Part shown: in pieces, positions 16,568 to 28,707 of the stretch
Position numbering within the stretch: the stretch's first letter is position 1
Layout of the letters: every line of letters starts with the position of its first letter
From: Gammaproteobacteria bacterium
Lineage (GTDB): Bacteria; Pseudomonadota; Gammaproteobacteria; Pseudomonadales; Azotimanducaceae
Assembly (NCBI GenBank): GCA_009843635.1
Contig: VYDB01000084.1
Span: forward strand, 1-52,482
Direction: 5' to 3'
DNA length: 52,482 bases
Program-made: the position numbers and the translations under genes
Notes under the pieces: model-generated
What the model saw: the letters and a program-made list of their open reading frames with translations, nothing else
What the model was told of the DNA's origin: nothing
The model's database searches: none

Positions 16568-17065
16568 ATGAGTTGGATCGCCACCGCCGGAGACTCGCCG
16601 CCACTTGAAGGGCTGTTCGCCCATCGCCCGGAGTTGCTGACCTGCTACAAGGCCTTCTACAGCACCTTGTGGGACGATGATCTGGTGCCGCGGCGCGTTC
16701 TCGAGCTCTGCCGCTTGCGGATTGCGGCGATTCACGATTGCGCCGCCGAATGGGCGGTACGCGATGCGGGCGTCGCCTTGGACAACCCCGAAGCAGCGGC
16801 CTTGAAGCGCGGGGACTTTGCCGCCTTCGCAGCCTCGGAGCAGGCGGCGCTCGCCATCGCCGAGCGGTTTCCCTTCGAGCATCACGGGGTCAGCGATGCG
16901 GATGTCGCCGAAGCGGCCAAGACGTTTGGCGAAGCGGGCACGGTGGCACTCATGGTGGCGCTGGCGTTTTTTGACGCAACCTGCCGATGGAAGCTGGCTT
17001 TCGACTTGGCAGAGCTGCCTGCCAATCTGAATTCTCCGCCGCTCCACCAAGGCGCGTTGGTTTAG
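16568..17065 (+). CDS. Carboxymuconolactone-decarboxylase/AhpD-like protein (first of a pair)
   Basis: A 165-residue all-helical protein that aligns by eye with the CMD/AhpD family: RRVLELCRLRIAAIHDCAAEWAVRDAG lines up in two blocks with the helix that carries the CxxC motif. Here the first Cys is kept (DC) but the second position is Glu (C-A-A-E). A thiol pair is therefore missing and peroxidase activity of the AhpD type is unlikely. Another helix, ALMVALAFFDATCRWKLAF, follows. The start codon has only a weak GTGAG upstream. The gene ends 8 bp before the next CMD-like gene, so the two probably form an operon and perhaps a complex. Confidence 0.7.
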   Translation: MSWIATAGDSPPLEGLFAHRPELLTCYKAFYSTLWDDDLVPRRVLELCRLRIAAIHDCAAEWAVRDAGVALDNPEAAALKRGDFAAFAASEQAALAIAERFPFEHHGVSDADVAEAAKTFGEAGTVALMVALAFFDATCRWKLAFDLAELPANLNSPPLHQGALV

Positions 17066-17073
17066 GCGGGAAC

Positions 17074-17583
17074 GTGTCCACCCGTCCCAGAATGCCATCC
17101 GCCATTCCCGGCCAGCCACCGGACTTCGGCTCGGTGATGGCCCATGTGCCGAAACTCGCAGGCCTGTTCTTCGAGCTCTACGGGGAGTTTTGGCGCAACG
17201 GGGTCGCCGACCCCGCCATCAAGGAGATGACCCGAATTCGCAACGCCCGCATCACCGACTGCGGCTACTGACGCCGGGTGCGCTTTGACTCCGCCCGTGC
17301 GGCGGGGCTGAACGAAGAACGGGTCGAACGCATCGCGGACGGCTACGAGCAAGCGCTGGAACCCGCCCAAGTGGCGGCATTGAAGCTCACCGACGCCATC
17401 ATCGGAGTCCCCGCGCCGCCCGGCGACGACATCCAGCAAACCCTGAAGGCGAACTACAGCGAGGCGGAAATCGCCGAACTCGCCATGGGCGTGGGCCTGT
17501 TCCTCGGCATGTCGAAGGTGCTCATCAACTTAGGTCTAGAGCCGGAGGACATGCCGGTCACGGTGGTGCCGACGCCGGGATAG
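17074..17583 (+). CDS. Candidate selenoprotein: AhpD/CMD-like protein with in-frame UGA at the CxxC site
   Basis: A 169-residue reading frame read through one in-frame TGA at 17269-17271. Before it comes EMTRIRNARITDCGY; after it, in the same frame, RRVRFDSARAAGLNEERVE. The helix pattern R-x-R-N-A-R-x3-C-x2-C-R-x-V-R is that of CMD/AhpD-like proteins, so the UGA stands exactly at the second redox Cys (position 66, with Cys63). The rest is full length and shows no other stop or shift. The downstream helices (LKLTDAIIGVP, LAMGVGLFLGMSKVLINL) look intact. A GTG start at 17074 has GGCGGGA just upstream; an ATG at 17092 is an alternative. AhpD-like selenoproteins are known from marine metagenomes. 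Alternatives are a TGC-to-TGA mutation or a sequencing error. No Sec machinery is seen in this window. Confidence 0.72.
17289..17307 (+). promoter_or_regulatory. Candidate bacterial SECIS hairpin
   Basis: CTCCGCC (17289-17295) and GGCGGGG (17301-17307) form seven pairs (one G-U) around the five-base loop CGTGC. The stem begins 17 nt and the loop 24 nt after the UGA. The loop has a G in its second position followed by U. These traits agree with the loose consensus for bacterial SECIS elements (small apical loop with an early G, loop roughly 16-37 nt past the UGA). GC-rich DNA makes such hairpins by chance fairly often, so this is supporting and not decisive evidence. Confidence 0.5.
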
Positions 17584-27493: not shown

Positions 27494-27979
27494 ATGAGCC
27501 AGCTCACGCACCAGAACGCTCGGGGCGAAGCCAACATGGTCGATGTGTCCGCCAAGGCGGAGACCGTGCGTGTCGCGGTGGCCGAAGCCCGGCTGCGGAT
27601 GCAGGCCGGCACCCTGGCGGAGATCTTCGATGGCGGCCTTGCCAAGGGCGATGCGGTGGCAGTGGCGCGGGTGGCGGGCATTCAGGCCGCGAAACGATGC
27701 GCCGAGCTGATTCCCCTGTGTCACCCGTTGCCCTTGAACCGGGTCTCCATCGACTTTGAGCCGGCCCCTCCGGACCAGGTTCGCATCAGCGCCGAATGTC
27801 GCGTAACTGGCCGCACGGGGGTGGAGATGGAGGCCTTGACCGCAGCCAGCATTGCCGCCTTGACGCTCTATGACATGTGCAAGGCGATTGACCAGGGCAT
27901 GGCCATCGAGCAGGTGCGCCTGCTGCGCAAGGAAGGCGGCCGCAGCGGCCTTTGGCGGCGCGAGGAGACGGGGCCGTGA
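27494..27979 (+). CDS. moaC: Cyclic pyranopterin monophosphate synthase
   Basis: A 161-residue enzyme that, after MoaA, forms the cyclic pyranopterin of molybdenum cofactor synthesis. Family blocks are [16 protein letters not shown] at the N-terminus, [16 protein letters not shown] near residue 75 and [20 protein letters not shown] followed by KAIDQGM. Length is standard. Its stop overlaps the moaD GTG start. moaA is not in the window. Confidence 0.96.
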
Positions 27980-28242
27980 TACGCGTGCTGTTCTTCGCCT
28001 CGCTCCGGGAGGCGGTCGGCATGGACGCTTGGACTTATTCCCCGGGCTCGGCCGGCTCGTCCCTGCGGTTGAGCGCTTTGCTGGCCGCCTTGAAGCCGGC
28101 GCTGGGGCCGGAAGGCTATGCCGCCCTCACGGCCGAAAACGTGCGCATCGCCGTCAACCAGGAGTTTGTGGATGGTCCTGCGCGAGTCGATCTCAAGTCC
28201 GGCGACGAGGTGGCGTTCCTGCCGCCGGTAACAGGCGGGTGA
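27976..28242 (+). CDS. moaD: Molybdopterin synthase small (sulfur carrier) subunit
   Basis: An 88-residue ubiquitin-fold sulfur carrier. It begins [14 protein letters not shown] and ends in the GG tail (LPPVTGG) that becomes thiocarboxylated. The GTG start overlaps the moaC stop as GTGA. moaE begins 6 bp after its stop, so MoaD and MoaE, the two subunits of molybdopterin synthase, are made from one message. Confidence 0.94.
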
Positions 28243-28248
28243 CCGGTT

Positions 28249-28707
28249 ATGCAGCGCATCCGGATTCAGACTGACGACTTCTCCGTCGATGGGGAATGGA
28301 AGGCGCTTCGCGAACAGCTTGACGCCAATGCCGGCGCGGTGGCCGCGTTCGTGGGGTTGGTGCGGGAGGTCCAGGGCGATCGCGGCTCCAGTTTGGAACT
28401 AGAGCACTACGCCGGCATGACCGAGCGGAGCGTCGCGGCCATCGTTGCCGAAGCCGAACGGCGCTGGCGCCTGGCTGCGGTGACGGTCATTCATCGAGTG
28501 GGGCGTTTGCGGCCCACGGATCAGATCGTCCTGGTGCTTACCGCTTCGGCCCACCGCTCGGACGCCTTGGCGGCCTGTGAGTTCATCATTGACCGCCTAA
28601 AGACCGACGCCATCTTCTGGAAGCGGGAAACCGCGGACGGCGACACCCGTTGGGTGGAAGCGACCGAGCAGGACGTGGAGCGGGCCAAGGGCTGGGTTGG
28701 CCGATAG
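28249..28707 (+). CDS. moaE: Molybdopterin synthase catalytic subunit
   Basis: A 152-residue catalytic subunit that inserts sulfur from MoaD into precursor Z. The family blocks are AVAAFVGLVRE, LELEHYAGMTE, VIHRVGRLRPTDQIVLV and the active-site LKTDAIFWKRE with its two lysines. It is the last gene of moaCDE and convergent with the PH-domain gene, 31 bp apart, with no clear terminator between. Confidence 0.95.
   Translation: MQRIRIQTDDFSVDGEWKALREQLDANAGAVAAFVGLVREVQGDRGSSLELEHYAGMTERSVAAIVAEAERRWRLAAVTVIHRVGRLRPTDQIVLVLTASAHRSDALAACEFIIDRLKTDAIFWKRETADGDTRWVEATEQDVERAKGWVGR

What the first reader, a model, noticed from the sequence alone, without database searches (positions are those of the whole stretch)
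17074..17583. Candidate selenoprotein: AhpD/CMD-like protein with CxxU in place of CxxC
The frame is intact on both sides of one UGA (17269-17271), with Cys63-Gly-Tyr before it and Arg-Arg-Val-Arg after. In this family the UGA position is the second redox Cys. Chance mutation would hit this codon rarely. The stop context is UGAC, as in formate dehydrogenase. AhpD-like selenoproteins have been reported from marine metagenomes, but not, to my knowledge, in this gene setting. If real, standard annotation will have cut it into a 65-residue and a 101-residue piece.
Basis: partly seen in the sequence, partly recalled or inferred. Interest (0 to 1): 0.9.

Follow-up and report, generated by a model that had tools for sequence, protein, structure and literature searches.

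The report
Selenocysteine redox protein with inactive partner
A marine-type bacterium very probably reads a stop codon inside a small redox-protein gene as the rare amino acid selenocysteine; this kind of selenium protein was already known, but here it travels with a look-alike partner gene that lacks the second redox residue.

Summary
Frame 17074-17583 holds one TGA (17269-17271) at the second redox position of a CMD (PF02627) protein. The genome has selA, selB, selD, tRNA-Sec and a SelW-like gene with CGVU. In 200 genomes of the same family, 43 orthologous loci carry 41 TGA and 2 TGC at this codon. Of 126 relatives in named genomes, the 80 kept have TGA (50) or TGC (30), no other codon. selA is found in 37 of the 41 family genomes with TGA, in 20 of 20 TGA-form named genomes tested (of 50), and in 0 of 28 alphaproteobacterial TGC-form genomes. 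A hairpin 20-34 nt after the UGA shows silent compensatory changes (204 of 205 pair cells kept). So this is very probably a real selenoprotein with a SECIS element. CMD/AhpD-like CxxU selenoproteins have been in print since 2005, so the kind is not new. What my literature searches did not turn up is the pairing: a CMD-fold neighbour without the second redox residue lies beside the gene in 78 of the 80 relatives (upstream; downstream in alphaproteobacteria). Function, a thiol/selenol oxidoreductase working with that partner, is inferred. No structure model could be made (server busy).

The parts
17074..17583 (+). CMD-family selenoprotein gene, 169 aa with Sec66 (CGYU); GTG start
   Evidence: (PF02627 30.8 bits, cut-off 23, with C for U)
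17269..17271 (+). in-frame UGA, predicted to be read as selenocysteine
   Evidence: TGA in 41 of 43 family orthologues, TGC in 2; TGA 50 / TGC 30 in 80 relatives (35 of the 80 contain a sequence of the first set)
17289..17307 (+). SECIS-like hairpin: conserved stem 17291-17295 with 17301-17305 (7 bp when 17289-17290 / 17306-17307 are counted), loop CGUGC 17296-17300
   Evidence: silent compensatory changes; loop Arg codon CGT 41 of 41
16568..17065 (+). partner gene: CMD-fold paralogue, 165 aa, with CxxE (DCAAEW) in place of CxxU
   Evidence: hhalign to the selenoprotein profile, probability 99.0, E 3.3e-18; a relative of it directly upstream in 48 of 50 TGA relatives

Best explanation
The UGA at 17269-17271 is decoded as selenocysteine by SelB and tRNA-Sec, directed by a short hairpin (SECIS) 20-34 nt downstream. 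The product is a 169-aa CMD-fold oxidoreductase whose active pair is Cys63-Sec66. Most likely the selenol of Sec66 attacks the substrate (a peroxide, disulfide or other electrophile) and is then released by Cys63 as a Se-S bridge, as in AhpD-type enzymes. It most likely works together with the product of the gene just upstream (16568-17065), a CMD-fold paralogue without the second redox residue, probably as a heteromer. Shown by sequence: the UGA/Cys column, the covarying hairpin, the Sec machinery, purifying selection, the conserved neighbour. Inferred: actual Sec insertion, the redox chemistry, the complex. The confidence given is for the selenoprotein reading; for the redox chemistry I would say about 0.7, and for the heteromer about 0.5.
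For: selA 504.6, selB 419.7 and selD 255 bits, all over the curated cut-offs; tRNA-Sec near selB (RF01852 75.2 bits). Orthologues in the family: 41 TGA and 2 TGC of 43 loci. Named genomes: 50 TGA and 30 TGC of the 80 relatives kept out of 126. selA in 20 of 20 TGA-form genomes tested (7 of the 37 gammaproteobacterial ones and all 13 others) and 0 of 28 alphaproteobacterial TGC-form genomes. SECIS stem: 204 of 205 cells paired, 28 cells changed on both sides at two pairs, reached by 0 of 500 shuffles; slid versions have 0-4. The four positions concerned are third codon positions. CGT 41 of 41 at the loop Arg against 21 of 195 (10.8%) elsewhere in 27 of the genes. The two gammaproteobacterial TGC forms keep 3 and 1 of the 5 pairs. 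SelW-like CGVU gene in the same genome. Partner beside the gene in 48 of 50 TGA and 30 of 30 TGC relatives.
Against: No protein or read data. Hairpin energy alone is not unusual: z +0.71 for 17260-17330; z +1.27 for 17272-17316, where the minimum-energy fold is another one and the SECIS hairpin is only the centroid. The 13 TGA relatives outside the gammaproteobacteria keep only 1-3 of the 5 pairs; hairpins elsewhere are predicted for those folded, with no covariation test. Four of the 41 family genomes with TGA show no selA: G102, G107 and G117 are 68-82% complete, and G107 has tRNA-Sec, but G187 is 96% complete and shows neither selA, nor selB or tRNA-Sec over the cut-offs. The two gammaproteobacterial TGC forms lie in genomes that keep selA. 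L066 has no partner detected. The AhpD His residues (recalled) are Tyr/Phe65 and Arg70 here, so the AhpD mechanism cannot simply be carried over.
Confidence: 0.96

Rival explanations
1. Pseudogene or sequencing error: a Cys codon mutated to TGA or was misread, and the gene is dead.
For: A single base separates TGC/TGT from TGA; the genome is a draft in 152 contigs.
Against: The same codon is TGA in 41 of 43 family orthologues and 50 of 80 relatives from four phyla by record label; dN/dS is low on both sides; silent covariation downstream.
Confidence: 0.01
2. UGA is reassigned genome-wide (to Cys or another residue), not recoded locally.
For: A UGA=Cys code would also fit the TGA/TGC column.
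Against: selA, selB, selD and tRNA-Sec are present; a hairpin with silent covariation would be unexplained; the six other CMD matches of this genome carry no in-frame TGA, one of them a TAA. UGA use as an ordinary stop was not counted genome-wide.
Confidence: 0.01
3. Function rival: a reductive dehalogenase or decarboxylase of a catabolic cluster, not a peroxide or disulfide reductase.
For: The profile matches the CMD-family debrominase Bmp8 in the PDB, E 7.6e-4; Bmp8 is reported as dehalogenating and decarboxylating (PMC7918430, passages). Neighbours here include EthD, SnoaL, DUF1330 and TonB receptors; some neighbours in relatives look like acyl-CoA dehydrogenase, SDR, LLM-type or Rieske proteins (read by eye, not scanned).
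Against: The match is weak, and CMD structures without a stated substrate match better. The window's EthD and TonB neighbours were found only in near relatives, within flanks of at most 1.5 kb.
Confidence: 0.2
4. The partner gene is a neighbour kept for shared expression only, and the selenoprotein works alone as a homo-oligomer.
For: No interaction data; the CMD and AhpD structures that I recall are homo-oligomers.
Against: Adjacent in gammaproteobacteria, Chloroflexota, and MAGs labelled Myxococcales and Actinomycetota, and, with the order swapped, in 28 of 28 alphaproteobacteria.
Confidence: 0.35

Closest known systems
CMD domain-containing selenoprotein of the Sargasso Sea (Pfam02627, CXXU, 4 sequences), PMC1088965
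   Same: Same Pfam domain, same CxxU motif, Sec at the second position, predicted bacterial SECIS (passages).
AhpD-like 2 (pfam02627, CxxU, 70 selenoproteins in GOS), PMC2398784
   Same: Same domain and motif (passages).
   Different: Subfamily membership untested; the gene linkage reported in the passage seen is Prx-like 1 with AhpD-like 2, not a CMD pair.
NCBIfam NF053654 'YciW-related (seleno)protein'; also NF041047, NF041238, TIGR01926
   Same: Nearest curated models; NF053654 matches 20 of 20 orthologues scanned at E <= 0.01.
   Different: The four matches of the window protein are all below the curated cut-offs (NF053654: 20.9 of 310 bits).
AhpD family core domain, TIGR00778
   Same: Matches the Glu and CxxC/CxxU region, residues 44-88.
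   Different: 20.1 bits, cut-off 27.8; the AhpD His positions (recalled) are Tyr/Phe65 and Arg70 here.
Debrominase Bmp8 (PDB 6ohi)
   Same: CMD-family chain matched by the profile.
   Different: Weak match (E 7.6e-4); function not transferable.

Membership tests
Bacterial selenoprotein | in-frame UGA aligned to Cys of homologues | tested here: met
   41 TGA / 2 TGC of 43; 50 TGA / 30 TGC of 80
Bacterial selenoprotein | SECIS hairpin just downstream with a G in a small apical loop | tested here: met
   loop CGUG invariant in 41 of 41; criterion as in PMC1088965 (passages). Met by covariation; stability alone is not unusual
Bacterial selenoprotein | SelA, SelB, SelD and tRNA-Sec in the genome | tested here: met
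Bacterial selenoprotein | selenium found in the protein | not testable with these tools
   needs 75Se labelling or mass spectrometry
CMD family (PF02627) | score over Pfam's gathering cut-off | tested here: met
   30.8 bits, cut-off 23, with Cys for Sec
AhpD core domain (TIGR00778) | score over curated cut-off; catalytic Glu, Cys, His, Cys, His (residues recalled) | tested here: not met
   20.1 of 27.8 bits; Glu51 and Cys63 present, the two His positions are Tyr/Phe65 and Arg70
NCBIfam selenoprotein families NF053654, NF041047, NF041238 | score over curated cut-off | tested here: not met
   window protein: NF053654 20.9 of 310 bits; NF041047 and NF041238 not listed for it at E <= 0.01
Sargasso CMD / GOS AhpD-like 2 selenoproteins | clustering with those sequences | not tested
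   I did not have those sequences

The most novel reading that the evidence does not exclude
A two-gene selenoenzyme: a CMD subunit with a Cys-Sec pair and a related subunit that lacks the second redox residue form an obligate hetero-oligomer, kept in Pseudomonadota, Chloroflexota and MAGs labelled Myxococcales and Actinomycetota, with the Sec subunit in a Cys form in alphaproteobacteria in which no selA was found.
Probability: 0.5. Interest if true: 0.6.

Novelty: new member of a known kind. Interest (0 to 1): 0.45.

Why it matters
Annotation that takes UGA as a stop cuts this gene in two, and the NCBIfam release searched has no model that reaches its cut-off on the window protein, so the gene is probably misannotated in dozens of genomes (inference; annotations were not checked). 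The natural Sec and Cys forms, both beside the same kind of partner, make a clean test of what selenium adds to a CMD enzyme and of whether a paralogue without the redox pair is a structural or regulatory subunit. The Cys form occurs in named Erythrobacter and Porphyrobacter strains.

Tried and rejected
Hairpin stability as evidence: rejected, since z-scores are positive for the longer stretches and only -1.18 for 17287-17315; the covariation is the evidence. UGAC context as evidence: rejected (17 C, 24 A of 41). Conserved operon beyond the partner: EthD, 16150-type and 15463-type neighbours were found only in L013 (the window itself), L014 and L015, the TonB receptor only in L013, L015 and L016 (flanks of at most 1.5 kb, so genes further off would be missed). 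The wider neighbour clustering shows families recurring in 4 to 62 loci, but it joins families by single linkage and was not used for counts. The other three UGA read-through candidates in the window (14081 -, 28240 +, 38732 -) show no CxxU or UxxC motif and were not pursued. Stem pairs were scored for 52 of the 80 relatives; the 28 alphaproteobacterial TGC forms were missed by the motif used and were not scored. The partner profile used 14 sequences. Partner peptides are stop-to-stop pieces, so an in-frame stop inside a partner could not show there; in the stretch printed no partner of an orthologous locus has one. The script stopped on an error after writing its file, which read. My second notebook entry says 42 genomes for the 43 loci; it is 43.

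Literature: listings; passages only, no whole text or full section, of PMC1088965, PMC2398784, PMC13188914, PMC9312934, PMC1242214, PMC7918430. That the pairing is not in print rests on these alone, of which only (CMD with pseudoenzyme, 0 papers) came near the question. In one search (Azotimanducaceae or selenocysteine; papers with more of the terms come first) the 10 listed have 0 for Azotimanducaceae.

Full report
Observation. The frame at 17074-17583 is open except for one TGA at 17269-17271, in the context DCGY-UGA-RRVRF. Read with Cys at that codon it matches Pfam CMD (PF02627) at 30.8 bits, cut-off 23. Third-position GC is the same before and after the UGA (0.83, 0.84). The start GTG aligns with the ATG of relatives.

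Machinery. The window is contig C61 of a 4.49 Mb draft genome. That genome has selB (419.7 bits) and selA (504.6 bits) side by side, tRNA-Sec on the same strand about 0.6 kb from selB (Rfam RF01852 75.2 bits), and selD (255 bits) in a 742-aa frame. It also has a SelW-like gene with an in-frame TGA in CGVU. The known requirements for reading UGA as Sec are there.

Relatives in the same family. A search of 200 genomes of the family found a match at E <= 1e-5 in 91. Of the listed matches, 43 loci in 43 genomes are orthologues at 54% identity or more; the one in G076 was matched in two pieces and is counted once. At the codon 41 have TGA and 2 have TGC. selA is found at E <= 0.001 in 173 of the 200 genomes, over the cut-off in 163. 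Of the 41 genomes with TGA, 37 show selA and 4 do not (G102, G107, G117, G187). Three of the four are 68-82% complete; G107 has a tRNA-Sec (72.7 bits) and a C-terminal selB piece on the same contig, and G102 a selB-like N-terminal piece at a contig end. G187 is 96% complete and shows no selA, and no selB or tRNA-Sec over the cut-offs. Since selA, selB and tRNA-Sec lie together in the window's genome, one missing contig could explain it, but it stands as an exception.

Relatives in named genomes. The genome-contig scan matched 158 stretches; 126 encode relatives and 80 were kept. All 80 have TGA (50) or TGC (30) at the column. 35 of the 80 contain one of the 41 sequences of the first set, and the two gammaproteobacterial TGC loci have the contig lengths of the two in the first set, so the sets overlap. 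By record label, TGA forms come from Pseudomonadales and other gammaproteobacteria, Chloroflexota (Dehalococcoidia, Tepidiformaceae), one Myxococcales and one Actinomycetota MAG, and one MAG called only 'bacterium'; TGC forms from 28 alphaproteobacteria (Erythrobacter, Porphyrobacter and kin, some named strains) and two gammaproteobacteria. The nearest relative with a family label is Candidatus Azophilus lithoversatilis, Candidatus Azotimanducaceae. selA was sought in 50 of the 80 genomes: found in 20 of 20 TGA forms (7 of the 37 gammaproteobacterial and all 13 others), in both gammaproteobacterial TGC forms, and in 0 of 28 alphaproteobacterial TGC forms. A quick tree of the protein needs 2 changes of state; 41 of its 78 inner forks are weak, and direction is not inferred.

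SECIS. In the 41 TGA orthologues, aligned without gaps, RNAalifold proposes a 5-bp stem with a 5-nt loop starting 25 nt after the UGA. 204 of 205 cells form standard pairs; 28 cells are changed on both sides, at two pairs (C-G to U-A in 12 and 16 sequences). 0 of 500 shuffles reach the paired percentage, the number of double changes or the covariation score; slid versions show 0-4 double changes. Two other measures, pairs with a double change and further pair types, do not exceed the shuffles (480 and 500 of 500 reach them), because only two pairs vary freely. Shuffles ignore kinship, so this is not a probability. The four positions of the two changing pairs are third codon positions, so the protein does not explain the coupling. 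The loop CGUG is invariant; its arginine codon is CGT in 41 of 41, while CGT is 21 of 195 Arg codons elsewhere in 27 of the genes and the nearby invariant Arg70 uses six codons. The two gammaproteobacterial TGC forms keep 3 and 1 of the 5 pairs. Against: single-sequence energies are ordinary, and in the window's own 45 nt after the UGA the minimum-energy fold is another one, the hairpin being the centroid. The 13 TGA forms outside the gammaproteobacteria keep only 1-3 of these 5 pairs; other hairpins are predicted in those folded, untested by covariation.

Selection. dN/dS in six comparisons is 0.02-0.30 upstream and 0.00-0.29 downstream of the UGA, the 0.00 being a case of saturated dS. The downstream part therefore evolves as translated protein.

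The partner. The gene just upstream (16568-17065) has no Pfam match at E <= 0.001, but a profile of 14 such genes aligns with the selenoprotein profile over 150 columns, hhalign probability 99.0, E 3.3e-18. In these 14 the first redox position is Cys and the second Glu. Among 78 partner peptides, 72 have a residue at the second position and none is Cys (Glu 37, Ala 21, others 14); the first position is Cys in 32 of those 72; in several the loop is shortened. A partner lies directly upstream in 48 of 50 TGA relatives and in both gammaproteobacterial TGC relatives. Exceptions are L064 (contig end) and L066; L142 is weak (E 3.3e-9). In 28 of 28 alphaproteobacterial TGC relatives a similar gene lies directly downstream (E 3e-13 to 2e-18). 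The profile used for this was built from 47 upstream partners of the set itself (the window's included), so the upstream hits partly match by construction (tblastn with the window's partner alone finds an upstream hit in most of them); no alphaproteobacterial sequence went into it. The alphaproteobacterial CMD gene itself also matches the profile (about 1e-10 to 1e-13), so the downstream gene is safely a CMD paralogue without the CxxC, and its orthology with the upstream partner is likely but not proved.

How it most likely works. Sec66 as attacking selenol and Cys63 as resolving thiol follow from the CMD/AhpD fold and from CxxU motifs in known selenoproteins; this is inference. Glu51, Cys63 and Arg70 are invariant in the 20 aligned. 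The AhpD His residues (recalled) are not there, so substrate and proton path are probably different. The best-matching solved chains are CMD proteins named without a substrate, best E 1.1e-12; Bmp8 debrominase at E 7.6e-4 is a weak hint to dehalogenation.

Compared with what is known. CMD-domain CxxU selenoproteins were listed from the Sargasso Sea in 2005, AhpD-like 2 (pfam02627, CxxU) in the GOS survey of 2008, and both reviews seen list a CMD-like selenoprotein (passages). NCBIfam release 20 has several related selenoprotein models, none of which reaches its cut-off on the window protein. I therefore call it a new member of a known kind. The conserved pairing with a paralogue lacking the second redox residue is the part that may be new.

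Verdict. The finding is real and correctly interpreted. Interest 0.45: solid and widely conserved, but of a known kind; the pair raises it somewhat.

Noticed in passing
L150 (G000:C116:14167-14376): SelW-like protein with in-frame TGA in CGVU, a second likely selenoprotein gene of the same genome.
   Followed up: partly
L010:307-2535: SelD in a 742-aa frame with a CGGC motif and an N-terminal part that looks like an NADH dehydrogenase (by eye), like the Ndh-SelD fusions reported from GOS (PMC2398784 passage).
   Followed up: no
one search matches at 23-34% identity, e.g. in L056-L059, L061, L062: More distant CMD/AhpD-like paralogues with one or two in-frame TGA in many genomes of this family: probably further selenoprotein families.
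   Followed up: no
L065:4001-4594 and L052: The Candidatus Azophilus copy spans 594 nt instead of 507 and was matched in two pieces, with the TGA present; it looks like an insertion in the second half.
   Followed up: no
   Followed up: no
G187: A 96% complete family genome with the TGA form but no selA, and no selB or tRNA-Sec over the cut-offs: a missing contig or a recent loss.
   Followed up: partly
window 28240 + (27892-28704): Another TGA with a long open frame and high GC3 on both sides, without a CxxU or UxxC motif.
   Followed up: no
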